This document shows, one piece after another, positions 1 to 20,775 of a stretch of 31,836 nucleotides of DNA. The stretch comes from a virus. Below the pieces are notes generated by a model, which did not search any database, was not told the DNA's origin, and saw nothing but the letters and a program-made list of their open reading frames with translations. Location: positions 1 to 31,836 of IMG/VR virus record IMGVR_UViG_3300008954_000171; one strand, written 5' to 3'. Made by a program: the position numbers and the translations under genes. Position 1 is the stretch's first letter. Each line of letters opens with the position of its first letter.

Positions 1-153
1 ATGGGTGAGATTGACTACGACAAACTACTCGGTGAGTACGCAGACGATGCTCGGTTCTGGCAGGAACGAGCCGAACACTACCGTGCATTGCTTGAGAAAA
101 TTGGTCGAGATAATCCCGATATTGATGTGAATACAATGATGAAAGAAACATAG
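1..153 (+). CDS. Small hypothetical protein (early region)
   Basis: An open frame of 50 codons begins with ATG at the first base and ends with TAG. The product is charged and probably helical (for example DKLLGEYADDARFWQERAEH). I do not recognise a family. Because the window starts exactly at this ATG, the ribosome binding site cannot be seen and the true start could lie upstream. The G of the stop codon is also the first base of the following tRNA gene, so the two abut completely. Its position before the tRNAs and other small genes suggests an early accessory gene. Confidence 0.5.
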   Translation: MGEIDYDKLLGEYADDARFWQERAEHYRALLEKIGRDNPDIDVNTMMKET

Positions 154-225
154 CCCACGTAGCCCAATGGCAGAGGCAGTGGACTTAAAATCCATACAGT
201 GTGGGTTCGAGTCCCACCGTGGGTA
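153..225 (+). tRNA. tRNA-Leu (anticodon TAA), short variable loop
   Basis: A full cloverleaf can be folded. The acceptor is GCCCACG with CGTGGGT (one G-T closing pair), the D stem is GCC/GGC with GG in the loop, and the anticodon arm is GTGGA-CTTAAAA-TCCAT. The T arm is GTGGG-TTCGAGT-CCCAC and the discriminator base is A. The anticodon is TAA, which reads UUA leucine codons. CCA is not encoded. The gene is 73 nt with a 5-nt variable loop (ACAGT), whereas bacterial tRNA-Leu is normally class II with a long variable arm. The identity is therefore from the anticodon only. Its first base is the last base of the preceding stop codon. Confidence 0.85.
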
Positions 226-229
226 TCTT

Positions 230-302
230 GGGCTGGTAGCTCAGGGGTTAGAGCACCCGACTCATAATCGGTATGTCGTGAGTTCAAATCTCACCCAGCC
301 TA
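230..302 (+). tRNA. tRNA with CAT anticodon, probably tRNA-Ile2 (or elongator Met)
   Basis: A 73-nt cloverleaf folds cleanly. The acceptor is GGGCTGG/CCAGCCT, the D arm is GCTC...GAGC, and the anticodon arm is CCCGA-CTCATAA-TCGGT. The T arm is GTGAG-TTCAAAT-CTCAC and the discriminator is A. The anticodon is CAT. The stretch around the anticodon (GACTCATAATC) and the D arm resemble E. coli ileX (tRNA-Ile2, lysidine-modified, reading AUA) as I recall it, more than the initiator. Elongator tRNA-Met shares the CTCATAA loop, so the identity is not settled. It lies 4 nt after the first tRNA, and CCA is not encoded. Confidence 0.85.
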
Positions 303-337
303 TTCGTAATTAATGCCTAGAATAAGGAGACTTAGGC

Positions 338-1583: not shown

Positions 1584-1901
1584 TTGAAGAATAATAAATT
1601 TCTAAATTGGTTGGACGTAGAGGCTCTAGAGAAGGTTAAGCTTACCGCTTTGATTCTTGAGGGCAAGGTAGTTGTTAGGCCGGAAGGTTCTGAATATGGA
1701 GATTTATCTCACCTGCCTAAGAACAGAGAGATTAGTCCTGAGGATCAGATGAGAGCAGCTAAGCTGGACGCTCTTGCTAAAGTATTTGTTGCAGATGCAG
1801 CTAAGAATGGTAGGAAGGTATTACTTAAGCGTAAGTATAACGATCTTAAGTTCCATCCTAGATACAAGAGAGAGATCGCAGAGCTTAAACGTCAACCATA
1901 A
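1584..1901 (+). CDS. Small basic hypothetical protein
   Basis: The 105-aa product starts at TTG (GAAGGGAT lies 5 nt upstream); no ATG in this frame fits better. The C-terminal half is Lys/Arg rich (GRKVLLKRKYNDLKFHPRYK), which could suit nucleic-acid binding, while the N-terminal half is more neutral. No family is recognised. The stop codon lies inside the 21-nt element that precedes the RNA polymerase gene, so this gene probably closes the first small-gene operon. Confidence 0.65.
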   Translation: MKNNKFLNWLDVEALEKVKLTALILEGKVVVRPEGSEYGDLSHLPKNREISPEDQMRAAKLDALAKVFVADAAKNGRKVLLKRKYNDLKFHPRYKREIAELKRQP

Positions 1902-1915
1902 AAGGTAGATGTATA
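1895..1915 (+). promoter_or_regulatory. Repeated 21-nt promoter candidate upstream of RNA polymerase
   Basis: The sequence reads ACCATAAA, then A, then GGTAGATGTATA. It matches the element at 12431-12451 at 20 of 21 positions. A further AAGCTA-n-TGA follows both copies at slightly different spacing. This copy ends 35 nt before the RNA polymerase start and covers the TAA of the previous gene. Length and position suit a promoter for the phage polymerase. The terminal TATAGA could instead be a host -10 box, although no good -35 is seen at 17 nt. Confidence 0.5.
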
Positions 1916-1950
1916 GAAGCTATTGATACACCTAAGAAGGAGAACATCTA

Positions 1951-4440
1951 GTGTGTGAAACTATTTGGGACAGCCTTTCTATTGCAGAACAACGAGAGCT
2001 GGAAGCTCGTGAACTGTTTCGGGAAGAGGAGATGCTTAGCCTTGGGTCCTCTAGGTACTGGAGAACTACAGAAGATAAGAAGGGTAAACCAGAAGAAGCT
2101 TTCATTATGGAAGCAGGTACCTTTCTTTACCCTGCAATAGAAACTATTAGGCTAGAGTTAGCCAATACATATGAAGAAGGTGGAGCTAAACGCCTGCCAG
2201 AGTGGGCTCCTGCTTTCCTTTGGTTGAGTAATGAGCATATCTTAGTTCTTTTATTGAGAACTCTGTTGCCTACTACTAGTACCTTTAGACATTTCGAGGA
2301 GCTGCGACAGTCTTCTTGTTCTAAGCCTTGGGATAAACTACAGCAGACCGCTGCGAGAGAATTGTCCCAAGGACTGTGGGCCTTGTGCCAATACCATGAG
2401 GCTAGAGATACCTTTATGGAACAGTGGGAGAAGCAGTCCCATTACATTAAGAACTGGGACAATAGACAACAGCGTAGGTTTGTTAAGAAGGTAATGAAAG
2501 TACCTCGACTCTCTGTTAAGGCACGGCTCGCCCTAGGAGTCAAGCTCTTAGAGGTAGCAGAGGTTGGAGGAATAGTAGATCGTAAGCTTATCGAGAGTCA
2601 AGATAACTCTAAGCTAAAGAGACGAGTGTTCTATAGGCTACGTCCAGAGATACTTACAGAGCTGCATGCTAGGCATGATTTGTTTCAATGGATTAGACCT
2701 AAGTGGGGACCGATGGTGTCTCCTCCTAATGACTGGGAACAAAGCGACTCGGGTTATTGGACAGGTGGCTATTACATTGCTGGTATGCAGATGCGTTTTA
2801 TTAGACCAGCAACACCGGGGTATGATCAACTCGGCTTGACCAAGCCCGGCGACGTAACAGTAGAGGCTATTAATACTATACAACAAACAGAGTATGCTAT
2901 TAATCCCTTCATTCATGCAGCGATGTCTTTGGTGTATAAGAATAACCTAGAGTTAGGAGACTGTCCTAAGAGTCACTTAGAAGACTGGGCATTTCCTAGG
3001 TTTGAGGGAGAAGAAAGAACACATGATGGTAAGCTGACCAAGGAACTACAGCTGCATCTAAAGGAACTAGAGATTAGTCACGGGGAGTGGCATAAGTCTG
3101 AGGCTGATAGGCTTCGTATGTTAGAGCGTCTTGCTCTAAGCAAAGACCTGTTAGGGTACGATGCTTATTGGCTGCCCATAACACTAGACTTTAGGACTAG
3201 ATCCTACACTAGTACTGAGATGGTATCTCCACAGGGTTGTGACTTTGATAAGGCACTGTGTTGTTTTGCTATCAAGAAACCTCAAACAGATAGAGGTAGG
3301 TACTGGCTTAAGGTTCATATAGCTAATATGTTTGGTATAGATAAGGTGTCCTATGATGATAGGGTTGCTTGGGTAGATGAGAATGAAATACATCTCCTTG
3401 CCTGTGCTAAAGATCCTATCAATAATAGAGCGTGGATTGCTGCTGATAATAAACACAAGTGGCAGGCCTTAGCTGCTATTCGAGATCTATATATTGATCC
3501 TGAGTGGACTAGAGTACCAGTACAAAGAGATGGTTCTTGTAATGGTATGCAACACTGGTCTGCCTTAGGTAGAGATCCTGTTGGTGCCAAGGCTACTAAT
3601 CTACAGGATGCAGAAAAACCTGAGGATCTTTACACAGAAGTAGCAGAGGAATTATTAATTCTGTTGGAAGCTGATTTGAAATCAGAAGATCCAGAAAAAG
3701 AAAGATGGGCTAGGGCTTGGTTGCCTCAGGCTAAGAAGAATGGTAGGGCTTTGACCAAGAGAAGCTGCATGACATATCCGTATGGTGTTACAGCCAACGG
3801 TATTCAAAAGGCTTTGGTGAATGACAACCATTGTGATTGGCTATCTAAAGATGTACAGTACAAAGCAGCAGGGTATCTAACAAAGAAACTGCTGGAAGCC
3901 ATTTCTAAGGTTGTACATTCAAGCTACTTCTACATGCAGTGGATTAGAGAGGTCGCTAATGTAGCCAGTGCTAAGGGAGTAGTACTCTCTTGGCCGACAC
4001 CTTCTGGTAGTATTATTAATCATGGTTACTACGAGATGGAGACCAGTACATTAAATGTTTCTAACCAGCGGGTTAGGTTTGTTATACCTAGAATGGATAC
4101 TGGAACCATCTGTATTAGGGAAGCACGCAACGGTGTGGCTCCTAACTTTATACACAGTTTAGACGCTGCTCACATGCAACTAACAGTAGTTGCTGCTAGT
4201 GACGAAGGCTTAAACTGCTTTAGTATGATACATGATTCGTATGGAGTTCATGCAGTAGATATTGACACATTAGATATACATATTAGAGAGCAGTTCTTTC
4301 TAATGTATAGTTGTTGGTGTCCTATCAGTATGTTTATTGATGCCTTAACTAAATCTGTCAAGGCAGAGGTTGACGACTTCCCCGATAAGGGTGAGTTCGA
4401 TATCTCTTTAGTCAAGAAAGCGAGGTATTTCTTTTCATGA
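1951..4440 (+). CDS. T7-like single-subunit DNA-directed RNA polymerase
   Basis: The 829-aa product (T7 gp1 is 883 aa) transcribes phage middle and late genes. Conserved motifs are clear. DFRTRSYT resembles T7 DYRGRVYA. Motif A is DGSCNGMQHWSALGRDPVG, with the catalytic Asp at about residue 527. The O-helix-like motif is TKRSCMTYPYG, with Lys603 and Tyr611 spaced as T7 Lys631 and Tyr639. NGVAPNFIHSLDAAH and HDSYG follow, the latter with catalytic Asp762. The C-terminus ends in Phe-Phe-Ser rather than the T7 FAFA. GTG is the start, with AAGGAGA 7 nt upstream. The 21-nt element lies just before it and the next gene overlaps by ATGA. Confidence 0.97.
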   Translation: MCETIWDSLSIAEQRELEARELFREEEMLSLGSSRYWRTTEDKKGKPEEAFIMEAGTFLYPAIETIRLELANTYEEGGAKRLPEWAPAFLWLSNEHILVLLLRTLLPTTSTFRHFEELRQSSCSKPWDKLQQTAARELSQGLWALCQYHEARDTFMEQWEKQSHYIKNWDNRQQRRFVKKVMKVPRLSVKARLALGVKLLEVAEVGGIVDRKLIESQDNSKLKRRVFYRLRPEILTELHARHDLFQWIRPKWGPMVSPPNDWEQSDSGYWTGGYYIAGMQMRFIRPATPGYDQLGLTKPGDVTVEAINTIQQTEYAINPFIHAAMSLVYKNNLELGDCPKSHLEDWAFPRFEGEERTHDGKLTKELQLHLKELEISHGEWHKSEADRLRMLERLALSKDLLGYDAYWLPITLDFRTRSYTSTEMVSPQGCDFDKALCCFAIKKPQTDRGRYWLKVHIANMFGIDKVSYDDRVAWVDENEIHLLACAKDPINNRAWIAADNKHKWQALAAIRDLYIDPEWTRVPVQRDGSCNGMQHWSALGRDPVGAKATNLQDAEKPEDLYTEVAEELLILLEADLKSEDPEKERWARAWLPQAKKNGRALTKRSCMTYPYGVTANGIQKALVNDNHCDWLSKDVQYKAAGYLTKKLLEAISKVVHSSYFYMQWIREVANVASAKGVVLSWPTPSGSIINHGYYEMETSTLNVSNQRVRFVIPRMDTGTICIREARNGVAPNFIHSLDAAHMQLTVVAASDEGLNCFSMIHDSYGVHAVDIDTLDIHIREQFFLMYSCWCPISMFIDALTKSVKAEVDDFPDKGEFDISLVKKARYFFS

Positions 4441-4718
4441 GTGATGACAATGATACCACACAAACAGGTAAGTATGATAAGGCTAGACGAACTGTAGCAG
4501 AATACAGCAAGGATGCCAATGCTTCTCCTGTAAAGAGGAGGATTGCTCAATTGAATAAAGAAAAAAGATCGAGTGCGGGCAAAGGGGATAGTAAAAGACC
4601 TTGCTCTATAAGTAATGATGAGTATGGATTGCGTTATGATTTAGCCACGGGTCGGATGACTGTTGAAGAGTTTGAAGAGGCGATGGCCGCTCTCAAGACA
4701 AAGCAAGGAGAAGATTAA
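4437..4718 (+). CDS. Small hydrophilic hypothetical protein
   Basis: The 93-aa product overlaps the RNA polymerase stop by ATGA and ends one base into the phosphoesterase start, so all three are probably translationally coupled. It is highly charged: an acidic start (MSDDND), a Lys/Arg/Ser-rich middle, and a probable C-terminal helix (MTVEEFEEAMAAL). There are no transmembrane segments or cysteine motifs. I do not recognise a family. T7-like phages often have one or more small genes directly behind RNA polymerase. Confidence 0.7.
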   Translation: MSDDNDTTQTGKYDKARRTVAEYSKDANASPVKRRIAQLNKEKRSSAGKGDSKRPCSISNDEYGLRYDLATGRMTVEEFEEAMAALKTKQGED

Positions 4719-5425
4719 TGTCCAATGTTTTAGTAATTGCTGATACACATTGTCCGTGTATGCATGACGATTATGTTGACTTCCTATTAGAAATACAGGA
4801 GTCTTGGTCATGCGACAGAGTAGTGCATATCGGGGATGTAGTAGACTGGGCAAGTATCAACTACCATCCTAAGGCACCTAGTCTTAGAAACTCGGAAGAG
4901 GAGTTTGCTAAAGCCTATGAGCAAGTGCAGTGTTTATACTCTGCCTTTCCTAAGCTTGATTGGCTAGTAGGTAATCATGATTGTTTAACAGAGAGGAACG
5001 CTGCCGACATAGGCATGCCTGTGAATGTTCTTAAGGATTACAATAGTTTATGGGAAGTTGATAAGAACGATTGGACTATACATAGACGGTTCAAAGATCT
5101 GATTATTGATGGTGTTATCTATAGACACGGAGACAAGGGTAAGGGTGGAGGCTTTCCCGCCTTTGCTAATGCTCAAGTAGAGTTCCAGTCTGTTGTACAG
5201 GGACACTTTCATTCTACTTCTGGTGTTCTCTTCGGTGCTAATAGAAACTCTAGATACTTTGGAATGCAGGTCGGGTGTGGGGTTGACTATAGGTTATCAG
5301 CTATGGACTATGGAATCAAGTATGCCAAGAGACCTATACTTGGCTGCGGTGTTGTACTTAATGGGGAAATCCCTATCTTTGAGCCAATGCTTTTGACTAA
5401 TAAGAAAGGTATCCTCGAATGTTAA
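4718..5425 (+). CDS. Calcineurin-like metallophosphoesterase
   Basis: The 235-aa product has the ordered metal-binding motifs of the calcineurin-like phosphoesterase superfamily: DTH (residues 9-11), GDVVD (39-43), GNHD (85-88), His137 in a YRHGDKG segment, and GHFH (162-165). Such enzymes use two metals to hydrolyse phosphomono- or diesters. The substrate here is unknown; DNA ends, nucleotides and signalling dinucleotides are all possible. The ATG has AAGGAGAAG upstream. T7 itself has no equivalent gene at this site, but phosphoesterases occur in many marine podophages. The gene sits between RNA polymerase and SSB, so a nucleic-acid or nucleotide role is plausible. Confidence 0.88.
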   Translation: MSNVLVIADTHCPCMHDDYVDFLLEIQESWSCDRVVHIGDVVDWASINYHPKAPSLRNSEEEFAKAYEQVQCLYSAFPKLDWLVGNHDCLTERNAADIGMPVNVLKDYNSLWEVDKNDWTIHRRFKDLIIDGVIYRHGDKGKGGGFPAFANAQVEFQSVVQGHFHSTSGVLFGANRNSRYFGMQVGCGVDYRLSAMDYGIKYAKRPILGCGVVLNGEIPIFEPMLLTNKKGILEC

Positions 5426-5568
5426 AGGCAAGAGAAAGTATATCAAAACTTTGGGAGAGGTTTGCTTTCTATATTGCTCTAGTGTTTTTACCTCTCTCAT
5501 TTGCTGCTGTGATTATAGGATCAGTAGCTTGGGCCATTAATATGATAGGAGAATTAATCAATGGCTAA
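5419..5568 (+). CDS. Mini membrane protein
   Basis: The 49-aa product starts MLKARESISKLWERF and is followed by one long hydrophobic stretch (FYIALVFLPLSFAAVIIGSV and onward) to about residue 42. It is thus a single-pass, N-in type candidate with basic N-terminal residues. It overlaps the phosphoesterase by 7 nt and the SSB gene by 8 nt, which supports a genuine coupled gene. AAGAAAGG precedes the ATG. It could be a small inner-membrane early protein or, less likely at this position, a holin. No family is recognised. Confidence 0.65.
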   Translation: MLKARESISKLWERFAFYIALVFLPLSFAAVIIGSVAWAINMIGELING

Positions 5569-6121
5569 TTTATATGGCAAACCCTTTATTACGGGTGATG
5601 CAACGGTTATGTGGGGTCATCTTCATAAGCTTGACACTAAGTTTGGTGATGGGAACCACAACATTACAGTCGCGTTGACTGATGATCTTAAGGAGCTTCT
5701 TGCAGGTTCTATTGAGGCTAATGGCTGGAAGGCTACGAAGATCAATGGCATGTCTACCAACAAAGAAGGCGTAGAAGTGCTTAAGGTCAAGAACAGTCAG
5801 CTGGCACGTAAGGGCATTTCTGTCTTTACTTGTGTTGATGGTAGTGCTCAGCCAACTAAGGCTAGTCCCTTCGGTAACGATGTGGTTCGTCTTCGTTTGG
5901 TTCCGTGCAGCATCGAACGTGACGGTAGTGTTTCGTTCTATCTGGAGGCTTGTCAGATCATTGAGAAGCAGCCTTATGATAGCACGGAGAGCAGCGGGTT
6001 CTCGGCTGTCGAAGGTGCTTACGATGGTTCAGATGCTGAGGTTCCGGAAGAGCGGATTGCCTCTAGTGTCGCTGCTGAGGATATTACTCCAGAAGACGAA
6101 GATGTAGATCTTCCGTTCTGA
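5561..6121 (+). CDS. Single-stranded DNA-binding protein (T7 gp2.5-like)
   Basis: The 186-aa product resembles gp2.5-type SSBs in size, position and architecture. It has an OB-fold-like N-terminal body (about residues 1-135) with alternating strands. A strongly acidic tail of about 30 residues ends in DVDLPF; an acidic tail with terminal Phe is how gp2.5 contacts polymerase and helicase. It starts at ATG behind AGGAGAA. Codon use is biased to CGT for Arg and is more GC-rich than in neighbours, consistent with high expression. It would coat single strands and organise the replisome encoded downstream. Confidence 0.85.
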   Translation: MANLYGKPFITGDATVMWGHLHKLDTKFGDGNHNITVALTDDLKELLAGSIEANGWKATKINGMSTNKEGVEVLKVKNSQLARKGISVFTCVDGSAQPTKASPFGNDVVRLRLVPCSIERDGSVSFYLEACQIIEKQPYDSTESSGFSAVEGAYDGSDAEVPEERIASSVAAEDITPEDEDVDLPF

Positions 6122-6128
6122 GTAACCC

Positions 6129-6512
6129 TTGGCAAAACACTTACATAAGTGTGATGTCAAACCGTTATCTACAAACGAAGCATACATAGGACGCAAGAGG
6201 AAGACAGGTAAGTACAGAACTTATGAGATTGTCCTACCTAGAGCCTTACCCCCTAAAGAAAAGATCAATCTACCCGATGATGGGCCGATAGGTCTTACTA
6301 TTAGGGCTGGGTTTTCTAATAGGCAGTCTGATATAGACAACTGTATCAAGCCTTTCGTTGATATCTTGCAGAAAGTATATGAGTTTAATGATAACAGAAT
6401 ATATCGTCTAGATGTGACTAAAGTTAAGGTAGCCAAGGGTGAGGAGTACATCGCTTTCGATGTCTTTGGTCTTGACGAGGAACCCACAGACGATCCGGGC
6501 CTGCTCGGCTGA
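6129..6512 (+). CDS. RusA-like Holliday junction resolvase
   Basis: The 127-aa product carries the RusA-family core: SDIDNCIKPFVDIL with acidic D68 and D70, Lys74 and D78, followed by FNDNRIYRLDVTK with D88. These fit the metal-binding acidic residues of RusA endonucleases that cut Holliday junctions. In T7 this slot holds endonuclease I (gp3), so RusA probably resolves branched replication and packaging intermediates here. The start appears to be TTG at 6129 with only a weak ribosome site; no ATG occurs before the conserved core. A terminator stem overlaps its last codons. Confidence 0.85.
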   Translation: MAKHLHKCDVKPLSTNEAYIGRKRKTGKYRTYEIVLPRALPPKEKINLPDDGPIGLTIRAGFSNRQSDIDNCIKPFVDILQKVYEFNDNRIYRLDVTKVKVAKGEEYIAFDVFGLDEEPTDDPGLLG

Positions 6513-6533
6513 AAGGTCGAGCAGGTCTTTTTT
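6500..6533 (+). terminator. Rho-independent terminator after rusA
   Basis: CCTGCTCG (6500-6507) pairs perfectly with CGAGCAGG (6518-6525) around a 10-nt loop and is followed by TCTTTTTT. The stem begins inside the last codons of the resolvase gene and the stop codon is in the loop. It should separate the SSB/resolvase transcript from the primase-helicase unit, at least partly. Confidence 0.9.
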
Positions 6534-6571
6534 CTAATGAATAACTAATCGTGTGCAAGAAGGAGATTCTA

Positions 6572-8299
6572 ATGCAGACTGTTGAAGATGAGCTGACCTA
6601 CGTAGTAGACAGGCAGCAGTGTCCTAAGTGTGCCGATTCGGGCAAGGATAGTTCTGGTGATAACTTAGCTGTATACAATGATGGACATTCACATTGTTTC
6701 GCTTGCTCTCATCACGTTAAAGGAGATGGGACTAAAGTTATTACTAGCCCTAAGAACGAAGTAAGTGGAGAATGGAAGCCCTATCAAGGCAGCTTCTCTG
6801 ACCTATCTTCTAGACAAATTAATGTGAAGACCTGTAGACTGTATGGATATAAGCAGGCTGTTGTAGGAGACCAGAGCTTTGACTTCTGGAACTGCTACAA
6901 TGATGAAGGACAGCTCGTAGCACAAAAACTACGAGGAGAAAACAAGAAGTTTAAGTGGCACGGTAACAGTAGAAACCCACAGCTATTTGGACAACACCTC
7001 TATAAAATAGGTGGACGTAGGTTGATTATCACAGAGGGTGAGATTGATGCCATGACTGTGAGTCAGCTCATGGAAAACAAATGGCCTGTAGTATCCTTAC
7101 CTAATGGTGCAGCCTCTGCTTTGAGGGATATTAAAAACAATCTTACGTTTGTATCTTCTTATAAGGAGGTTGTGTTACTCTTTGATAATGATGCCGCCGG
7201 TAGAGAAGCAGCAGCGGCTGTTGCTGATATTCTACCTCCCGGTAACTGTAAGATTGGTAGGCTTATGCTTAAGGATGCTAACGAGCATCTCCTTGCCGCC
7301 GAGACTAGCTCTTTAATGACCGCTGTGTTCGAGGCTCAGGTATATACACCTGATGAGATTGTACACGTTAGTAATATCATGGCTGATAGCAAGAGCTTCG
7401 ATAGAAAGGTGTGGGCATTCCCTTGGGAAGGCCTAACTAATTTCTGCGTCGGACAAAGAAGCGGAGAGATTACTCTCTGGTCTAGTGGTACAGGCTCTGG
7501 TAAGAGTACCATCATTAGAGAACTTATCTTAGGTCACATTGATGAGGGACGTACTGTAGGTGCTATTATGTTAGAGGAGAGTCCTCAAGAAACCATTGAT
7601 GATTTAATTTCTCTCATGCTTAATAAGCCTGTACGTGCAATCAAGTCTCAGGAGATGTTAAACACCCTGAGGGAAGACATGGGACTACAAGCAGTTCCTC
7701 TTGAGAATCTAGGTACTGTTACTAACGAAGAATATAATGATGCTAAGGCTGAGCTTGGTGAGAAGGGCTTGTATATCTATGACCATGAGGGACATAATGC
7801 TATGCAAAACCTTATGACACGTATGGAATACATGGCTATTAGTTTAGGTGTAGATGTTATTGTTCTTGATCACATCACAGCGGCGGCTACTGCAATGCTT
7901 ATGGTAGAAGAAGGCATGAGTGATGAGAGGCTGCTTATTGATAAGCTGATGAAGGGTATGCGAAGTCTTGTTGCTAGAACAGGTGTTCATATTGATGTCG
8001 TGTCTCAACTTAAGAAGACTGACAAGGCGTATGAAGAGGGATCTAGAATTACTTTACAAGATCTACGTGGCTCTGGCTCTCTCGGTAGTGTTGCAAACAC
8101 AGTGATTGGACTTGAGAGAAACAGACAGATGCCAGATGAGCTGGAAGCCAATACCACTACGGTTCGTATTCTTAAAGATAGACTTACAGGACGAGCTGGT
8201 GTTGCTAGCTACTTATATTATGACCGTAAGCTTTCTAGGCTCAAAGAAATTGATGAACCCTCTTCGGATTCATTCACTGATGTAACCAAAAAGAACTAA
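6572..8299 (+). CDS. DNA primase-helicase (T7 gp4-like)
   Basis: The 575-aa product (T7 gp4 is 566 aa) unwinds DNA and primes lagging-strand synthesis. An N-terminal zinc ribbon has C17, C20, C42 and C45. The TOPRIM primase core has E155 in ITEGEIDAMT and D205/D207 in LLFDNDAAG, at nearly the T7 positions. The RecA-like helicase has Walker A GTGSGKST (Lys311), a Walker B-like VIVLDH, and VVSQLKK. It also has GSGSLGSVANTVIGLERN and a C-terminal KDRLTGRAG finger region. I chose the ATG at 6572 because AAGGAGA lies 6 nt upstream; an in-frame GTG at 6551 precedes that site. Confidence 0.97.
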   Translation: MQTVEDELTYVVDRQQCPKCADSGKDSSGDNLAVYNDGHSHCFACSHHVKGDGTKVITSPKNEVSGEWKPYQGSFSDLSSRQINVKTCRLYGYKQAVVGDQSFDFWNCYNDEGQLVAQKLRGENKKFKWHGNSRNPQLFGQHLYKIGGRRLIITEGEIDAMTVSQLMENKWPVVSLPNGAASALRDIKNNLTFVSSYKEVVLLFDNDAAGREAAAAVADILPPGNCKIGRLMLKDANEHLLAAETSSLMTAVFEAQVYTPDEIVHVSNIMADSKSFDRKVWAFPWEGLTNFCVGQRSGEITLWSSGTGSGKSTIIRELILGHIDEGRTVGAIMLEESPQETIDDLISLMLNKPVRAIKSQEMLNTLREDMGLQAVPLENLGTVTNEEYNDAKAELGEKGLYIYDHEGHNAMQNLMTRMEYMAISLGVDVIVLDHITAAATAMLMVEEGMSDERLLIDKLMKGMRSLVARTGVHIDVVSQLKKTDKAYEEGSRITLQDLRGSGSLGSVANTVIGLERNRQMPDELEANTTTVRILKDRLTGRAGVASYLYYDRKLSRLKEIDEPSSDSFTDVTKKN

Positions 8300-8310
8300 G
8301 GAGAACTAAT

Positions 8311-8601
8311 ATGCCTAGAGTAGGACCAAGATTAGTTAGAATAATACAAGCAATGGATAACTATCCTAGAGGAAGACAACAGGATTCGAGCCTTTGGCTT
8401 ACAGACGATGGACAACATCTTCTTGTATCTTGTGTACATGATGAGGATTTTAATATTGGATTCTTCGAGTCAATGATCTTTCCCTCGAACGAGGATGGAG
8501 ATATTGTTGGAGATACAGTATACGAAAGCTTTAAGTTTGAGACAAACCCAGAAAGTATGTATAGATATTGGGAAACTATTAAGGATATAAACAATGACTG
8601 A
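8311..8601 (+). CDS. Small hypothetical protein between helicase and polymerase
   Basis: The 96-aa product starts at ATG with AAGGAGAA upstream and overlaps the DNA polymerase start by 8 nt. It has a basic N-terminus (MPRVGPRLVR), a predicted beta-rich middle, and an acidic C-terminal half. No motif is recognised. T7-like phages carry small genes (4.x) here, so the position is typical, but no function can be assigned. Confidence 0.7.
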   Translation: MPRVGPRLVRIIQAMDNYPRGRQQDSSLWLTDDGQHLLVSCVHDEDFNIGFFESMIFPSNEDGDIVGDTVYESFKFETNPESMYRYWETIKDINND

Positions 8602-10429
8602 TCGAATCTTAGCATTTGATATTGAAGCTAATGGATTAGCAGAGGTCAATATCGTAGGTCAGGGACAGCCTGATCCTGAGATAAGTAAGATTCATTGTAT
8701 TGTTGCTGTTGATATTAAGACTAAGGAATTGTTTAAGTTTCGTAGTCATCAGGTCAAGGAGGCTTGGGATTTTCTTAGTGAAGCTAAGGTTTTAATCGCA
8801 CACAATGGATTGACTTATGATATCCTTGTACTAAACCGTCTGGTTGGTGCATCCTTTGTTGACTATAAGAAGATGCTTGACAAGACATACGATACTCTTC
8901 TTATGTCAAGGCTTATGTGGCCCGATAGACAGAAGAATCCAGCAGGTGGCTATAGCCTTAAGGCTGTAGGTGACTATGTTGGTGGGCAGCAGAAGGCTGA
9001 TTACTCTGGTGATTGGGAAGCCTTCTCTCAAGAGATGTTAGACTACTGTGTGCAGGATGTCTTAACAACGATAAATATATTTAATTATCTGACAAGAGGA
9101 CTCAAGGATCGTGGAGTTTCATCTAATGTTATTAAGATGGAACATGACTTTGCTAGGATCATTGCGTTACAGACAGAGCGTGGGTGGTGCTTCGATATTG
9201 ACAATGCTGAGAAGGTGTTGTTTCAAATCTTGGAGACCAAGAGAAGCATAGAAGATCAGTTGCGTTCTGTGTTTCCAGATACTGTCAAGCAAATGACTAG
9301 TGTAGAATACTATGTAGATCCTCAGACTAATCTAAAGTATTCAACCAAGAGTGAGGTTAAAGGTAAAGGGAGTGGTGCTATTAGGGCTAGGCTTATTGCT
9401 GGGCCTTATAAAACTAAATCAATACCATTCAATCCCGGCTCGTCTTTACAAATTACCCAGCGTTTCGGGGAGAAGTATGACTGGGTTCCAGACAGGAACA
9501 TTGAGACAGGTAACCCTATCTGTGATGTCAGTGTTCTTGAATCCTTAGACTTTCCTGAAGCGGCTTTACTTCTTAAGTATAGAGAGGCAGATAAGCTTAG
9601 AGGACAGATTGAGGATTGGATTCATCGGTCTGGTATTAGTAGGGATGGAAGAATACATGGTTCTTTGAATACATTAGGTACTGTGACAGGGAGAACATCT
9701 GCTAAGCAACCAAACATCCAACAGGTGTCTGGAGATTCTTTAGCTAGAGACCTGTGGACAGTACCACAAGATTCCTTTATGGTAGGTTGTGACCTGTCTG
9801 GACTAGAGCTTAGGTGCTTAGCACATTATCTCTATCCATTTGATGGGGGTGTATATGCTAACGAGATTCTTTCGGGAGATATACATAAGCTCAATCAAAA
9901 TGCTGCAGGTTTAGAAACTAGAGACCAAGCAAAAACATTTATCTACGCCCTAATCTATGGCGGAGGCAACGCAAAGATTGGTGAGGTTGTAGGAGGGAAC
10001 GATAGACAAGGTGCAAGTCTTAAGTCTAAGTTCTTCAAACGATTGCCTGCACTTAAGAATCTTATTGAGAATACCAAGGGAGAGGCTGGTCTGATGGGTA
10101 ACATTACCCTTATTGACGGAAGGCCTGTACCTTTAAGGTCTGAGCATAAGGCCTTGAGTGTTCTATTACAGGGATGTGGAGCCATTGTGGCAAAGCAATG
10201 GTGCATCGAAGCGCATAAGATCTTAGAGAGAGATGGTGCTTCTGATAACTGTTTTCAGATTGGCTTTATTCATGATGAGATGCAGTGGGAATGCTCAGAT
10301 GATTCCTCTGCAACCTATCTATGCGATGTGTTAGAACAGGCTGCTGTGAATGCTGGAGAATATCTGAACATGAGTATACCAATTGAAGCTGAGGCTACAA
10401 TTGGTCGTAATTGGAGTGAGTGTCACTAA
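8594..10429 (+). CDS. Family A DNA polymerase with 3'-5' exonuclease (T7 gp5-like)
   Basis: The 611-aa product replicates the phage genome. The exonuclease has D9 and E11 in FDIEANG, an HNGLTYD motif and YCVQDV. The polymerase has GTVTGRTSAKQPNIQQ, motif A DLSGLELRCLAHY (D400), the O-helix KTFIYALIYGGG (K447, Y451, Y455, spaced as T7 K522, Y526, Y530), and HDEMQWE (D561). It is about 90 residues shorter than T7 gp5. Nearly all of the missing length (about 79 residues) lies before motif A, about the size of the T7 thioredoxin-binding insertion. It overlaps the preceding gene by 8 nt. Confidence 0.97.
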   Translation: MTDRILAFDIEANGLAEVNIVGQGQPDPEISKIHCIVAVDIKTKELFKFRSHQVKEAWDFLSEAKVLIAHNGLTYDILVLNRLVGASFVDYKKMLDKTYDTLLMSRLMWPDRQKNPAGGYSLKAVGDYVGGQQKADYSGDWEAFSQEMLDYCVQDVLTTINIFNYLTRGLKDRGVSSNVIKMEHDFARIIALQTERGWCFDIDNAEKVLFQILETKRSIEDQLRSVFPDTVKQMTSVEYYVDPQTNLKYSTKSEVKGKGSGAIRARLIAGPYKTKSIPFNPGSSLQITQRFGEKYDWVPDRNIETGNPICDVSVLESLDFPEAALLLKYREADKLRGQIEDWIHRSGISRDGRIHGSLNTLGTVTGRTSAKQPNIQQVSGDSLARDLWTVPQDSFMVGCDLSGLELRCLAHYLYPFDGGVYANEILSGDIHKLNQNAAGLETRDQAKTFIYALIYGGGNAKIGEVVGGNDRQGASLKSKFFKRLPALKNLIENTKGEAGLMGNITLIDGRPVPLRSEHKALSVLLQGCGAIVAKQWCIEAHKILERDGASDNCFQIGFIHDEMQWECSDDSSATYLCDVLEQAAVNAGEYLNMSIPIEAEATIGRNWSECH

Positions 10430-10776
10430 TGAGAATTTATATTGCAGGACCTATGTCTGGTATGCCTAACAATGGTTACGATTCTTTCGATAGAAAAGAA
10501 AAGCAACTTAGAGAGGCTGGTTGGATAGTAATTAATCCAGCTGAGATGGACAGAGAAAATGGCCTAGAAGAAGAAAGAGAATTTAGCCGTGCTGATTATA
10601 TGCAGGCAGCACGAAGAGATCTAATAGCGTTACAAACAGTTGATGCTGTTTATATGCTAGATGGGTTTGAAGATTCCCCCGGTGCTTGTTGGGAATGGGC
10701 ATATGCTAAAGAGCTTGGTTTGTCTGTATTTTATGAGATACCTCTTCCCGTTAAGGGAGGTGGACCATGCAAATAG
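10429..10776 (+). CDS. DUF4406-like / nucleoside deoxyribosyltransferase-fold protein
   Basis: The 115-aa product begins MRIYIAGPMSGMPNNGYDSF, the signature of DUF4406 and related nucleoside 2-deoxyribosyltransferase-fold proteins. Later AVYMLDGFEDSPGACWEWAYAKELG matches the family's acidic/Glu active-site helix region. It probably acts on nucleotides, but the exact reaction is unknown. The ATG overlaps the polymerase stop (TAATG). A GTG three codons upstream is closer to a GGAG and could be used. It overlaps the kinase by 10 nt. With the following gene it forms a nucleotide-metabolism pair behind the polymerase. Confidence 0.78.
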   Translation: MRIYIAGPMSGMPNNGYDSFDRKEKQLREAGWIVINPAEMDRENGLEEEREFSRADYMQAARRDLIALQTVDAVYMLDGFEDSPGACWEWAYAKELGLSVFYEIPLPVKGGGPCK

Positions 10777-11612
10777 TAGCCTTAACAGGGCAAGCTAGGT
10801 CAGGAAAGACTTATGTTGCTCAAGAGCTGGCAAAGATAGCCTTTAACAAAGGGCTCTTGCCCGTCTTCGTAAGCTTTGCTGGTGCTCTAAAGAGAGAAGC
10901 AGCAGAGCTGGGATACGACAAGGATACCTTACCTGATAAGTATAGAACATACTGTCAGGACAGAGGGGCAGAGATGAGAATAGAAGATCCCGACTACTGG
11001 GTGAAGGAAACGGCAAAAGAAATTGTTACTATTGCTCAGGCTGAAAAAGAATCCATTAAGAATAATGACAAACACTGGGAGAGGGTGGTTTTAATTGATG
11101 ATGTAAGATATCTAAATGAGATAGCTCTTATTGCTAAGATGGATGGTGTCTTTATTCATGTATATGCTGGTAGTAGACTACCAGATCCTGAGGGTGAGTG
11201 GAGACAGCATGAAAGTGAAAGCCTCTCAAAGATTATTGATGGGACTAAAGAGGACTTAGATAAAAGAGAGTTTATCTTTTGTTCTAATAGAGAAGAAGAT
11301 GATGATAAGCCAGATTATGATATCTCTGTATTCTGGTTAGATAACGAAACAACAAAAGATAAGTTAAGTACTATTCTTGAAAAGTTTGGACCCTTCTTCT
11401 TAGGTATTCGTTTGGTTGGTGATGTTGTAGGACCGCCTGCTACAGATAGTATTACTATTGACCTACTAAAAGAAAAATACAATAAACTACAAGGCTTTTT
11501 AGATCAAATTCTAGGAGAAATAGATGATGACGAGCAAGGATGGAGACCCGAGGACGATGGATGGAGTCCCGGAAACGGACCTACCGAAGATCCCTACTCT
11601 GACATTGATTGA
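10767..11612 (+). CDS. P-loop kinase, dNMP-kinase-like
   Basis: The 281-aa product has an N-terminal Walker A GQARSGKT (residues 8-15). A later VVLIDDVRYLNEIALI segment is typical of the deoxynucleoside monophosphate kinase family (T4 gp1 type), where an Asp-Val-Arg-x-x-Asn-Glu motif follows. It would phosphorylate dNMPs for DNA synthesis. The C-terminal third (after about residue 190) is unlike the kinase core and ends in an acidic, Pro/Gly-rich tail. That tail is encoded by DNA that also encodes the start of the exonuclease (89-nt overlap). A strong GGGAGGTGG precedes the ATG. Confidence 0.8.
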   Translation: MQIVALTGQARSGKTYVAQELAKIAFNKGLLPVFVSFAGALKREAAELGYDKDTLPDKYRTYCQDRGAEMRIEDPDYWVKETAKEIVTIAQAEKESIKNNDKHWERVVLIDDVRYLNEIALIAKMDGVFIHVYAGSRLPDPEGEWRQHESESLSKIIDGTKEDLDKREFIFCSNREEDDDKPDYDISVFWLDNETTKDKLSTILEKFGPFFLGIRLVGDVVGPPATDSITIDLLKEKYNKLQGFLDQILGEIDDDEQGWRPEDDGWSPGNGPTEDPYSDID

Positions 11613-12366
11613 TGGTGACTGGGTAGCATACACTGCTGCCTACTGGGCTGAGAAGGAAGGGTATGACGCTCTTTTTGATAGGCTCTCATATGATATCAGG
11701 TGTTATACGCCAGCGTCAGCGGACAGTATACTCTGTGTGTTCAGTGACAGTAGGACTAACAACTACAGAAGAGACTCTTGGCCTATTTACAAGATTAATA
11801 GGGATGACAAGGAGGCTCCTCAGTTCCTTAACGACTCCAAGAAATACCTTGAGGATAATTATCCGTCAAGAACAGTGTTGCGGTTAGAAGCAGACGATCT
11901 TATAGGCCTTGCTGTCAGCAAGGGAGTTGCTTCTGCTGTCTCTATTGATAAGGATATGAGGACTATTCCGGGATGGCATTGGAATCCTAATAAAGAGGAT
12001 GATATGACCTACGTTACACAAGCTGATGCTTACAGAAACTTCTGTAAACAGCTTGTTATGGGAGATAGTACTGATAATATCTTCGGTATGGTAGGTAAAG
12101 GTGCAGCACACTTCGAGAAGAACATTGCTATCTTACCCCCAGAGGATTGGATGGATGCCATTATCGAGGGATATGCAGAGTCCTTTAAAAACCCCGGTAA
12201 GAGGTATATTAGTAAGGTAAAGAACATCAGAGAGGATCTCTTATTTGATGACCCTTATGATTACTTCCTGTCTCAGGCTAGATGCTTGAGGATCCTTCAA
12301 TTTGAGGACTATAACAAGGATACTGGGGATATAGATCTCTGGAATCTGGATAAGGTTATGCGATAG
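11524..12366 (+). CDS. 5'-3' exonuclease (T7 gp6-like, FEN/PIN-type)
   Basis: The 280-aa product shows the metal-binding pattern of phage 5' nucleases: LIDGDWVAY near residue 30, LEADDLIG, SIDKDMRTIPG and VMGDSTDNIFG. It would remove RNA primers and degrade host DNA, as T7 gp6 does. AGGAGA lies 5 nt before the ATG pair at 11524/11527, supporting this start despite an 89-nt overlap with the kinase. An internal ATG (MDGVPETD) could give a shorter form without losing the conserved core. A perfect terminator hairpin follows the stop by a few bases. Confidence 0.9.
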   Translation: MMTSKDGDPRTMDGVPETDLPKIPTLTLIDGDWVAYTAAYWAEKEGYDALFDRLSYDIRCYTPASADSILCVFSDSRTNNYRRDSWPIYKINRDDKEAPQFLNDSKKYLEDNYPSRTVLRLEADDLIGLAVSKGVASAVSIDKDMRTIPGWHWNPNKEDDMTYVTQADAYRNFCKQLVMGDSTDNIFGMVGKGAAHFEKNIAILPPEDWMDAIIEGYAESFKNPGKRYISKVKNIREDLLFDDPYDYFLSQARCLRILQFEDYNKDTGDIDLWNLDKVMR

Positions 12367-12372
12367 CCTTAG

Positions 12373-12399
12373 GGTACCCTAGAAATAGGGTACCTTTTT
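12373..12399 (+). terminator. Rho-independent terminator closing the replication genes
   Basis: GGTACCCTA (12373-12381) pairs perfectly with TAGGGTACC (12386-12394) around a GAAA tetraloop, followed by TTTTT. It starts 7 nt after the exonuclease stop. This marks the boundary between the replication and late regions. Confidence 0.93.
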
Positions 12400-12430
12400 A
12401 GCACCAGTTGGGGATTTTAGGCTCTTCTAG

Positions 12431-12451
12431 ACCATAAATGGTAGATGTATA
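12431..12451 (+). promoter_or_regulatory. Second copy of the 21-nt promoter candidate, head of the late region
   Basis: ACCATAAA, then T, then GGTAGATGTATA, matching 1895-1915 at 20 of 21 positions and again followed by AAGCTA-n-TGA. It lies 32 nt after a strong terminator and about 70 nt before the first late gene, where a late promoter is expected. The gap 12400-12519 holds no other convincing feature. The overlapping TATAAT at 12448-12453 could be a host -10 box, but the corresponding -35 position is poor. Confidence 0.55.
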
Positions 12452-12519: not shown

Positions 12520-12852
12520 ATGGATATACATAATGATATACACAATGCATCCCACTGTCCTTGCTTGCTTTGCAGAGCTAATCTACAGTGGGCAGATGAC
12601 GAGATCGCAGAGGTAGAATACATAGCCCTTTTAGAAAGTTTTATTGCACCTGTTCTAATTGCTATTTCGTCTGCATCTAAGGAAAGAAACCCCGGATGCA
12701 AGAAAAGCCCTATTGCTTTGATGTGCCTTCTAGGGTGCTTCCTCGCAAAAAGTGCTTCAGTCCTTGATATGCTCAATCATCAAGGACCTAAAGAAACATC
12801 AGATGCTTATATGCTTAAGGCATGGGCAGAATCATTAACAGCAGAGGACTGA
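12520..12852 (+). CDS. Hypothetical protein, first gene of the late region
   Basis: The 110-aa product begins MDIHNDIHN, encoded by an imperfect 12-nt tandem repeat (11 of 12 bases alike). Then comes CPCLLC, a Cys cluster that might bind a metal. Two hydrophobic segments (around FIAPVLIAI and PIALMCLLGCFLA) suggest membrane association or a hydrophobic core. The ribosome site (AGAGAG) is modest. It is not recognised. It is the only gene between the late promoter candidate and a strong terminator, so it may be made at high level relative to genes beyond that terminator. Confidence 0.65.
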   Translation: MDIHNDIHNASHCPCLLCRANLQWADDEIAEVEYIALLESFIAPVLIAISSASKERNPGCKKSPIALMCLLGCFLAKSASVLDMLNHQGPKETSDAYMLKAWAESLTAED

Positions 12853-12883
12853 TGTCCTCGGATTTAAAGTTAGATCTCCTTGG

Positions 12884-12919
12884 CCTGCTTGCCCCTCTTC
12901 GGAGGGGTGGGTGGGTTTT
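12884..12919 (+). terminator. Rho-independent terminator with TTCG loop
   Basis: CCCCTC (12892-12897) pairs with GAGGGG (12902-12907) around TTCG. The stem can be continued outwards through several G-T pairs to CC at 12884-12885 with GG at 12914-12915, and TTTT follows. It lies between the first late gene and the lysis-like cassette. Termination may be incomplete, giving graded expression. Confidence 0.82.
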
Positions 12920-12948
12920 CAAGGGATCTCATTACAAGGAGAAGTACA

Positions 12949-13245
12949 GTGACAAACACTACAACTAAAACAGAAGAATCAGCGACCGAAGAGACTATGC
13001 CGCCAATCGGCATCGCTATTAACACCTTGGGCCAAGCCGCTCAAAACATTCATGAAGCTGCTGGAGCATTACATCCCGGTGATCAGGGTATTATGGTATC
13101 TCTTGCAGCTCAGATTGGTACTGTTGGACAAATGTTTATGCATGCTGTTAAGCAAGCTCAAGAAGCAGAGCAAAAGGCTAACGATGCAGAATTAGAAGAT
13201 GACACTATGGTTTTAGATAAGGAAGTAACGGCTACTGATGCTTGA
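12949..13245 (+). CDS. Small helical hypothetical protein next to the holin-like gene
   Basis: The 98-aa product starts at GTG with AAGGAGAA about 6 nt upstream. The same frame is open further upstream, but that stretch is the terminator and has no ribosome site. The N-terminus is Thr/Glu-rich and disordered. The middle (about residues 18-60) is a moderately hydrophobic, Ala/Gly/Gln-rich region, followed by a helical KQAQEAEQKANDAELEDD segment. It overlaps the holin-like gene by 8 nt. No family is recognised. It could be a structural or lysis accessory protein. Confidence 0.7.
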   Translation: MTNTTTKTEESATEETMPPIGIAINTLGQAAQNIHEAAGALHPGDQGIMVSLAAQIGTVGQMFMHAVKQAQEAEQKANDAELEDDTMVLDKEVTATDA

Positions 13246-19468: not shown

Positions 19469-19591
19469 ATGTACTACTTTAGTTCTCCCATAGATGAAGA
19501 CTCCCTCACGGGAATAATCTATATATTTGTGGCCTACCAAACTTTCGCAGTATTTCTAATTCTTTTTAGAAAGGTAGGTGGAACATGGTAG
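19469..19591 (+). CDS. Possible 40-aa membrane protein overlapping the capsid start
   Basis: An ATG frame of 40 codons encodes MYYFSSPIDEDSLTG, a 19-residue hydrophobic helix (IIYIFVAYQTFAVFLILF) and a basic end (RKVGGTW). Its TAG overlaps the capsid ATG by 7 nt, as other neighbours do in this genome. The acidic front and basic rear suggest a single-pass membrane protein with the C-terminus inside. The ribosome site (GAGCGG) is weak, so it could be untranslated leader. It explains most of an otherwise empty gap. Confidence 0.4.
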   Translation: MYYFSSPIDEDSLTGIIYIFVAYQTFAVFLILFRKVGGTW

Positions 19592-20715
19592 ATCATGCTC
19601 CAATCACTACATGGGGTCAGGACGCGGCAGTCCCGACCGTTACAACCAACACAACCAATACTCCAGTAAGTCTGGATCTTTGGTTGCCAACTTGGGCTGG
19701 AGAAGTAATTTCAGCCTATTCAGCTTACAATGTTTTTGAACCATTGGTCGATTCTAGAACCATCACAAGTGGTACTACGATTGAGTTCCCAGTCATGGGT
19801 ACTATTGGTCTCGAAGATGCTTGGGAAGCTGGCGAAGAGCTCATGGGTGGAGGTTCCTCAACCACGAAGTTCTCGATCAGTCTGGACCGGCGTCCTATGG
19901 CTGCTCACTTTGAAGAGGATAACATTCAGCTGATGGTTCAGCAGATTGATTATCGTCAGGGTCGTGCTCGTGAGTGCGGCCTGCGTCTTGCTAACGAAAG
20001 AGATCGTCAGATTGCTCGCCTTATCACTAAGGGTGCAAAGACCTCGACTTCCCGTCAGCATGAGCGAGACGGTGAGACTCCTGCGGCTGATGCCTCAGGT
20101 GGTCTTGACACACGTTACGTGGGTCACAGCTACGTCACTCTCGACGAGACTGGGACGATTGTTGACACGGGTGAAGCAAAGGCTCTTAAGGTCCTTGCCG
20201 CAATTGAGGATCAATTGGTTCTCTTCCGTGAGCTTGATGTTGCTGAAGAAGGTACGTACTGTGCTGTCAGCCCGGCTCTCTTCCATGAGATCCGTAGGCT
20301 CGGTATTGCAGATGCTACAGGGGACTTCGCGTCCGGCGGTAGCCGTCCTATGTTCGGTGGCGACACTGGTATGGGTGCGAGCGCTGGTGCTCCTTACACA
20401 GAAGCTGTTGGAATGGCCGGTAAGCTTCGTTACATGGGAGTTACTATCTGTAGCTCCAACCACATTGCTTCCCAAGGCAGTGCGTGGGCGGCTGCAGGTG
20501 ATACCAACTATCGTGTTGATATGACCAATGTCCGTGGTTTGATTTGGCAAAAGGGCGGAGTTGCTTCTATCGTGAAGCAAGGCCTGAACGTCAAGTCCGT
20601 CAACGATGTCCGTCGAAACACAGTCTTTACTGTGGCTTCGATGTATCGTGGTGGTGGTGTCCTTCGACCGGAGCTTTGTGCTACGATTGAAATTGATCCG
20701 ACCCTGACGAGCTGA
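19585..20715 (+). CDS. Major capsid protein (T7 gp10-like, HK97 fold)
   Basis: The 376-aa product (T7 gp10A is 345 aa) forms the icosahedral shell. It has the usual order: an N-terminal arm, then LWLPTWAGEVISAY, then an E-loop-like SGTTIEFPVMGTIG with EAGEELMGG. A long helical and P-domain region follows, and VNDVRRNTVFTVASMYRGGG stands near the end. About 21 of 24 Arg codons are CGN, whereas AGA/AGG is common elsewhere, and the gene is noticeably more GC-rich than its neighbours. This fits selection for very high expression. A strong terminator follows, as Tphi does in T7. I see no sign of a frameshifted 10B form. Confidence 0.95.
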   Translation: MVDHAPITTWGQDAAVPTVTTNTTNTPVSLDLWLPTWAGEVISAYSAYNVFEPLVDSRTITSGTTIEFPVMGTIGLEDAWEAGEELMGGGSSTTKFSISLDRRPMAAHFEEDNIQLMVQQIDYRQGRARECGLRLANERDRQIARLITKGAKTSTSRQHERDGETPAADASGGLDTRYVGHSYVTLDETGTIVDTGEAKALKVLAAIEDQLVLFRELDVAEEGTYCAVSPALFHEIRRLGIADATGDFASGGSRPMFGGDTGMGASAGAPYTEAVGMAGKLRYMGVTICSSNHIASQGSAWAAAGDTNYRVDMTNVRGLIWQKGGVASIVKQGLNVKSVNDVRRNTVFTVASMYRGGGVLRPELCATIEIDPTLTS

Positions 20716-20739
20716 TGCTAAGTAATTAGCGTTCACTTG

Positions 20740-20775
20740 CCCTAGGCCCCCTCGCAGGGGCCTAGGGTATTTTTT
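20740..20775 (+). terminator. Strong Rho-independent terminator after the capsid gene
   Basis: CCCTAGGCCCC (20740-20750) pairs perfectly with GGGGCCTAGGG (20757-20767) around CTCGCA, followed by TATTTTTT. The position matches T7 Tphi, which lowers transcription past the capsid gene into the tail genes. Confidence 0.95.

What the first reader, a model, noticed from the sequence alone, without database searches (positions are those of the whole stretch)
1895..12451. 21-nt element duplicated before RNA polymerase and before the late genes
ACCATAAA-(A/T)-GGTAGATGTATA occurs at 1895-1915 and 12431-12451 with 20 of 21 bases alike. Both are in or next to non-coding gaps, one right after a strong terminator. 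AAGCTA-n-TGA follows both at slightly different spacing. A match of this length between two such short gaps is very unlikely by chance. Size and placement suit the promoter of this phage's own RNA polymerase, which would then also activate its own gene, unlike classic T7. A host promoter ending in TATA(G/A)(A/T) is the alternative.
Basis: partly seen in the sequence, partly recalled or inferred. Interest (0 to 1): 0.75.

Follow-up and report, generated by a model that had tools for sequence, protein, structure and literature searches.

The report
Paired promoters for phage's own polymerase
Two almost identical 21-letter DNA signals, one before an uncultured virus's RNA polymerase gene and one before its late genes, are very probably the start sites used by that same polymerase, because distant relatives keep a matching pair at the same two places but with a different spelling in each virus.

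Summary
Confirmed: 1895-1915 and 12431-12451 match at 20 of 21 bases. They are the only copies in the record and the only strong gap-to-gap match in it. The polymerase gene (1951-4440) is an intact T7-type RNA polymerase.

The decisive evidence is comparative. Relatives with about 40% identical polymerases (L008, L105, L106) also carry a pair in the same two gaps, before the polymerase and after the 5'-3' exonuclease. Each pair has its own sequence: 15-20 of 21 bases agree within a phage, 6-11 between phages before the polymerase. Aligned at the predicted start, all fit a T7/SP6-type promoter of -21 to +1, with A at -1 and nearly always G at +1. The polymerase's promoter-recognition loop is less conserved than the rest. 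No sigma-70 promoter fits.

It is a new member of a known kind. LUZ100 has a phage promoter before its own polymerase gene; Syn5 has only two promoters. No transcript data exist.

Not settled: two relatives encode a second single-subunit polymerase and a giant late protein with polymerase motifs, so which enzyme reads the element is inferred. The window is truncated at both ends.

The parts
1895..1915 (+). Promoter element 1 (P1), -21 to -1; predicted +1 is G1916. Overlaps the stop codon of the preceding ORF.
   Evidence: orthologous elements before RNAP in L008 (9946), L105 (4294), L106 (9918)
12431..12451 (+). Promoter element 2 (P2), -21 to -1; predicted +1 is A12452. Heads the late region.
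   Evidence: orthologous elements after the exonuclease gene in L008 (20442), L105 (16379), L106 (20004), L094 (10715), L102 (5567), L120 (3839)
1951..4440 (+). T7-type single-subunit RNA polymerase (829 aa), proposed reader of both elements
   Evidence: PF00940 E 4.6e-86; phrog_414 E 2.9e-166; equivalents of T7 D537, K631, Y639, D812 present
1584..1901 (+). ORF before the polymerase, no family match; its stop codon lies inside P1
11524..12366 (+). 5'-3' exonuclease-like gene that ends the replication block; its end marks the orthologous late gap
   Evidence: PF02739 E 3.4e-6, below the curated cut-off; 47% identical to L008:19675-20430
12371..12398 (+). Intrinsic terminator (11-bp stem, GAAA loop, T run) between the replication genes and P2
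   Evidence: -19.4 kcal/mol, z -4.5
6497..6535 (+). Strong intrinsic terminator inside the P1 transcription unit
   Evidence: z -5.1
12520..12852 (+). First ORF after P2 (68 nt downstream of the predicted start), no PHROG match
12873..12951 (+). Conserved leader structure before the first conserved late gene: anti-RBS TCTCCTTGGCC (12875-12885), hairpin, RBS CAAGGAGA (12935-12942), start GTG 12949
20738..20775 (+). Intrinsic terminator after the major capsid gene (19585-20715)
   Evidence: z -5.4

Best explanation
The two elements are promoters, about 21 bp upstream plus +1, for the phage's T7-type single-subunit RNA polymerase. P1 (1895-1915, start G1916) transcribes the polymerase gene itself and the replication genes behind it. 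After a first round of polymerase is made by read-through from upstream early transcription, P1 gives positive feedback (an autogene). P2 (12431-12451, start A12452), insulated by the terminator at 12371-12398, transcribes the late (structural) block. The polymerase and its two sites have diverged together in each lineage. Shown: the pair, its placement, the parallel pairs in relatives, the intact polymerase. Inferred: that the elements are promoters at all, which polymerase reads them, the start positions, and the feedback.
For: Pair real and unique. Three relatives have lineage-specific pairs in the same two gaps: L008 GTTAAGTTTGGTACACC(T/C)ATA|G at 9946 and 20442, the only copies within 3 mismatches in 63.3 kb; L105 GCCCTT(A/G)AGCGTACAC..AA|G at 4294 and 16379; L106 CCACTTAGT..CAAC.A.A|G at 9918 and 20004, the only copies in 61 kb. 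Gap shuffles: p about 2e-7, 1e-5 and 7e-3 for L008, L105, L106. Identity within a phage 20, 20, 18 and 15 of 21; between phages 6-11 at the polymerase site. Columns aligned at the predicted start: A at -1 in 10/10, G at +1 in 9/10, A at -7 in 9/10, like T7/SP6 promoters. Polymerase catalytic residues kept; specificity loop 34-55% identical among L008, L105, L106 against 60-64% overall. In L008 and L105 the late RNA would begin with a stem that starts at the predicted +1 (z -3.0 and -3.9), and in L102 at +2 (z -2.2). No sigma-70 match at either copy on the + strand. All late genes in the L008 contig up to about 62 kb lie on the same strand, with no further strong copy.
Against: No transcript or binding data. 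The window has only two copies. The start base differs (G and A). The L106 pair is weak on its own (p 7e-3). A motif predicted the same way in the KP34 phages failed as a promoter in vitro (PMC6834552). The loop comparison mixes promoter contact with general divergence; window against L008 is 41% in the loop and 42% overall, so the window itself adds nothing there.
Confidence: 0.8

Rival explanations
1. The elements are promoters, but for a second phage polymerase (RNAP-B), which would switch on the main polymerase and the late genes in a cascade.
For: L008, L106 and L108 encode a second single-subunit polymerase of 641-682 aa upstream of the main one, with intact catalytic motifs. L008 has a third, weaker copy of the element near its left end, 1.8 kb before RNAP-B.
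Against: The window's early region is missing, so RNAP-B is not known to be there. The elements look like T7/SP6 promoters, and the main polymerase is the T7-type enzyme, with its own gene directly behind P1. RNAP-B has a differently shaped loop region.
Confidence: 0.1
2. Host sigma-70 promoters whose -10 box is TATAAT (copy 2) or TATAGA (copy 1).
For: Copy 2 ends in a perfect TATAAT; the host and its promoter grammar are unknown.
Against: No acceptable -35 and no sigma-70 match at either copy on the + strand. The conserved block reaches back to -21 without a break, unlike two hexamers and a spacer. Relatives keep a pair but not a -10 box (ACTAAAAG, AACTACAG, AACAAAAG). A host promoter would not need to differ by lineage in step at both sites.
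Confidence: 0.05
3. A site for another DNA-binding function, such as a repressor operator, a replication origin or a nick site, placed at two unit boundaries.
For: KP34-type phages have a duplicated early motif that was first called a promoter, was suggested to be a nick site, and failed as a promoter in vitro (PMC4411677, PMC6834552).
Against: Same strand at both sites, always just upstream of a transcription unit, no dyad symmetry in the element, and a promoter-like -7 to +1 shared with T7, SP6 and Syn5.
Confidence: 0.05

Closest known systems
Pseudomonas phage LUZ100 promoter phi1 and its polymerase (PMC10134795)
   Same: A phage-specific promoter lies directly upstream of the phage's T7-like polymerase gene, with proposed positive feedback; the set has a lineage-specific 17-bp motif unlike T7's.
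   Different: LUZ100 has eight mapped phage promoters; here two strong copies. The motif is different (LUZ100 GGCAATTACCACACAG-like).
Cyanophage Syn5 promoter ATTGGGCACCCGTAA and polymerase (PMC3950665)
   Same: Only two promoters in the genome, one of them serving tens of kilobases; the late elements of L008 and L102 (ACCCATA|G, ACCCGTA|G) resemble its CACCCGTAA|G end.
   Different: One Syn5 promoter lies inside its polymerase gene (PMC6834552) rather than before it; sequence otherwise distinct.
Coliphage T7 gene 1 and class II/III promoters
   Same: Enzyme family, catalytic residues, -17 to +1 promoter size with TATA at -4 to -1, order polymerase, replication, structure.
   Different: T7 gene 1 is preceded by the host C promoter, and phi1.1A comes after the gene; T7 needs about 15 phage promoters (PMC3950665).
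Klebsiella phage KP34 group
   Same: Two copies of a conserved motif proposed as phage promoters.
   Different: That motif did not work in vitro; the real promoters were elsewhere. A direct caution.

Membership tests
Promoter of a T7-type single-subunit phage RNA polymerase | Genome encodes an intact T7-type single-subunit RNA polymerase | tested here: met
   PF00940 and phrog_414 matches; equivalents of D537, K631, Y639, D812 conserved
Promoter of a T7-type single-subunit phage RNA polymerase | Continuous conserved block of about 17-23 bp on one strand, upstream of transcription units | tested here: met
   21-bp block, + strand, before the polymerase and before the late genes, in four lineages
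Promoter of a T7-type single-subunit phage RNA polymerase | A/T-rich -4 to -1 and purine +1 | tested here: met
   TATA or variants, A at -1 in 10/10, G or A at +1
Promoter of a T7-type single-subunit phage RNA polymerase | Promoter sequence diverges together with the polymerase | tested here: met
   Within-phage identity 15-20/21, between-phage 6-11 at the polymerase site; specificity loop less conserved than the whole among L008, L105, L106
Promoter of a T7-type single-subunit phage RNA polymerase | Transcription initiates at the element by the cognate polymerase | not testable with these tools
   needs in vitro transcription and 5'-end mapping
Bacterial sigma-70 promoter | -35 and -10 hexamers 16-18 nt apart | tested here: not met
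   no + strand match at 1895-1915 or 12431-12451; not kept in relatives
Family Autographiviridae (T7-like phage) | Own single-subunit polymerase, T7-like replication and capsid/portal genes, unidirectional genes | tested here: met
   RNAP, T7-type primase-helicase, family A DNA polymerase, head-tail connector, T7-type scaffold. Formal taxonomy was not tested; the genomes of relatives (over 60 kb) exceed the usual size

The most novel reading that the evidence does not exclude
The two elements are the middle and late nodes of a transcription cascade run by three T7-fold polymerases in one T7-like phage: a giant injected virion protein carrying a (possibly circularly permuted) polymerase domain, a compact second polymerase (RNAP-B), and the main T7-type enzyme that reads the paired promoters. 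The three components occur in the L008 contig; for the window only the main enzyme can be seen because both ends are missing.
Probability: 0.15. Interest if true: 0.85.

Novelty: new member of a known kind. Interest (0 to 1): 0.5.

Why it matters
It gives a testable polymerase-promoter pair, plus three or more parallel pairs, for a large-genome T7-like phage group that appears uncultured. Predicting cognate promoters is a recognised bottleneck: one survey failed for 18 of 44 polymerase families (PMC11475235). The comparative trick that worked here, matching the two conserved gaps within each relative instead of seeking one shared motif, finds promoters that exist in only two copies and that copy-number motif finders would miss. 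If right, these polymerases transcribe very long units (about 41 kb from P2 in L008) from one promoter, as proposed for Syn5. The relatives also raise the question of why a T7-like phage carries more than one such polymerase.

Tried and rejected
The exact 21-mer in IMG/VR: no other record. Looking for the pair in the 30%-identical polymerase relatives (L009-L029): no equivalent before the polymerase; the L016/L019 group has a different candidate (see noticed items). Weak matches to the 21-mer elsewhere in the window (15/21 or lower) are mostly coding or on the other strand and were rejected. Sigma-70 scan: no support. Host search through bacterial genomes: nothing. Rfam: only the two tRNAs. 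A structure model of the giant protein's polymerase-like domain failed (pLDDT 40, pTM 0.24), so no fold search was made; PDB sequence search with it gave nothing useful.

Full report
OBSERVATION. The two copies are at the stated coordinates and differ at one base of 21. Two matches within three mismatches stand against 0.01 expected. The window is the whole virus record (31,836 bases, linear, probably a fragment), so no further copies can be sought in it. Comparing each gap with each gap, the pair is the only match above threshold in the window; shuffling the two gaps gives p about 1e-6. Copy 1 overlaps the stop codon of ORF 1584-1901 and ends 35 nt before the polymerase start. Copy 2 follows a strong intrinsic terminator (12371-12398).

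CONTEXT. The gene at 1951-4440 is a T7-type single-subunit RNA polymerase (PF00940 E 4.6e-86, phrog_414 E 2.9e-166), only about 32% identical to any cultured phage's. It is followed by metallophosphatase, RusA-like, primase-helicase, DNA polymerase A, nucleotide-metabolism and exonuclease-like genes. After copy 2 come the head-tail connector, scaffold, capsid and tail genes. Equivalents of T7 D537, K631, Y639 and D812 are all present.

RELATIVES. Profile searches of IMG/VR found a clade with 40-45% identical polymerases: L008 (63.3 kb contig), L105 (20.1 kb), L106 (61.0 kb) and fragments L093, L094, L103, L104, L108. In L008 a different sequence, GTTAAGTTTGGTACACC(T/C)ATAG, sits just before the polymerase and again just after the exonuclease gene; no other copy within three mismatches lies in 63 kb. 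L105 has GCCCTT(A/G)AGCGTACACYAWAAGAG in the same two gaps. L106 has CCACTTAGTWYCAACWAMAG, again only twice in the contig. Gap shuffles give p about 2e-7, 1e-5 and 7e-3. L102 and L120, whose contigs lack the polymerase region, carry a matching element at the late gap. Within a phage the two sites agree at 15-20 of 21 bases; between phages the polymerase-side sites agree at 6-11. This lineage-by-lineage matching of two sites 10-12 kb apart is what a shared, co-evolving reader predicts.

FORM. Anchored on the predicted start, the elements read like T7 (TAATACGACTCACTATA|G, from general knowledge), SP6 and Syn5 promoters: A at -1 in all ten, G at +1 in nine, A at -7 in nine, G at -11 in most. The window's copy 2 would start with A; T7 phi2.5 does so too (general knowledge). 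In L008 and L105 the late transcript would begin with a stem whose first base is the predicted +1, and in L102 one that begins at +2, which independently favours that start. The window does not show this. The polymerases' specificity loop (T7 739-770) is 34-55% identical among L008, L105 and L106, against 60-64% for the whole protein.

MECHANISM. Most likely the elements are promoters for the main polymerase. P1 gives positive feedback on the polymerase gene and expresses the replication genes; P2 expresses the late block. First polymerase must come from upstream transcription; no strong + strand terminator lies between 300 and 1895. In the L008 contig all later genes up to about 62 kb are on the same strand and no further strong copy exists, so P2 may serve about 40 kb; Syn5 polymerase is reported to transcribe over 37 kb from a single promoter (PMC3950665). 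In L008 there is a third, weaker copy (CCTAAGTTTGGGATACCCATAG, contig 1842) in the early region, so 'two' is the number of strong copies.

RIVALS. Sigma-70 promoters do not fit. A non-promoter binding site cannot be excluded; the KP34 case, where a duplicated motif called a promoter failed in vitro, is a fair warning. The main open alternative is a different phage polymerase as reader.

SECOND POLYMERASE AND GIANT PROTEIN. L008, L106 and L108 encode a second single-subunit polymerase (RNAP-B, 641-682 aa), upstream of the main one, 38% identical between L008 and L106, with D421, R425, D537, K631, Y639 and D812 equivalents intact; its best cultured matches are about 22-28% identical over parts. 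L008 and L106 also encode a 4,245-4,286-aa late protein. In L008 it holds motif A (SIDGSQNGVRH) and motif B (KFAKKPVMVLPYG) of this polymerase family (PF00940 over cut-off; aligned to H4/4 gp29 with E 2e-13), and the L106 one matches phrog_414 (E 1.6e-5). A motif-C-like HDD lies before motif A in all three homologues, suggesting a permuted order, but the structure prediction failed, so this stays a sequence-level lead. Cultured Alteromonas phage H4/4 already shows two real single-subunit polymerases in an Autographiviridae genome, so two is not new in itself. The window is cut at both ends and cannot show these genes.

COMPARISON AND NOVELTY. LUZ100 has a mapped phage promoter directly before its polymerase gene with proposed feedback (PMC10134795). 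Syn5 has only two promoters (PMC3950665). T7 itself has the host C promoter before gene 1 and phi1.1A after it. The finding is therefore a new member of a known kind, with unusually clear comparative support. Interest 0.5: well supported and useful, not surprising in kind; the polymerase set of the relatives is the more surprising part, but lies outside the window.

Noticed in passing
L008:1674-3722, L106:4242-6167, L108 (about 1980-3911): A second single-subunit RNA polymerase (641-682 aa) with all catalytic motifs intact, upstream of the main one, in phages of this clade. Other contigs with a second polymerase-like ORF of about 600-665 aa: G007, G012, G016.
   Followed up: partly
L008 contig 46191-58928 (L279:5191-17928; L285), L106 contig (L283 minus strand, L287), L286: Giant late protein (4,245-4,286 aa) with polymerase motifs A and B of the T7 family and an HDD motif-C-like stretch placed before them (order C-A-B). 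Possible injected virion polymerase with a permuted palm; structure prediction failed.
   Followed up: partly
window 12873-12951; L008 20520-20600; L105 16453-16530; L106 20050-20122; L102, L094, L096, L120: Leader of the first conserved late gene holds an invariant anti-RBS TCTCCTTGG that can pair with the gene's RBS (C)AAGGA across a long hairpin. RBS-paired and RBS-open folds lie within 0.3-2.7 kcal/mol in window, L008 and L106; in L105, L102 and L120 the RBS-paired form wins. Looks like translational control or an RNase III site.
   Followed up: partly
L019:6814 and 13719; L016:1492 and 8716: More distant relatives (31% polymerase identity) have a repeated TTGGGGCTACTGATA|GGGAC element in two gaps, a candidate T7-like promoter pair.
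   Followed up: partly
L277:1842-1863 (L008 contig 1842): Third, weaker copy of the L008 element right at the end of an early ORF, 1.8 kb before the second polymerase.
   Followed up: partly
L008:1-3771 and L277: The left 6 kb of the L008 contig has 55-58% G+C against about 40% elsewhere, with five similar G+C-rich hairpins followed by CTCC(T/G)(T/G)TTTGA between early genes.
   Followed up: no
window RNAP, equivalent of T7 DWRGR (421-425): The window polymerase reads DFRTR where nearly all relatives and T7 have D-x-R-G-R.
   Followed up: no
window 153-303; L106 9764-9916; L008 7018-7091: Phage tRNA-Leu(TAA) genes recur in the early region of these phages, in L106 directly before the polymerase promoter.
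   Followed up: no
window 31700-31836: The contig ends inside a collagen-like repeat (ggtgctactggtgct...) of a long ORF starting at 30790, so assembly probably broke there.
   Followed up: no
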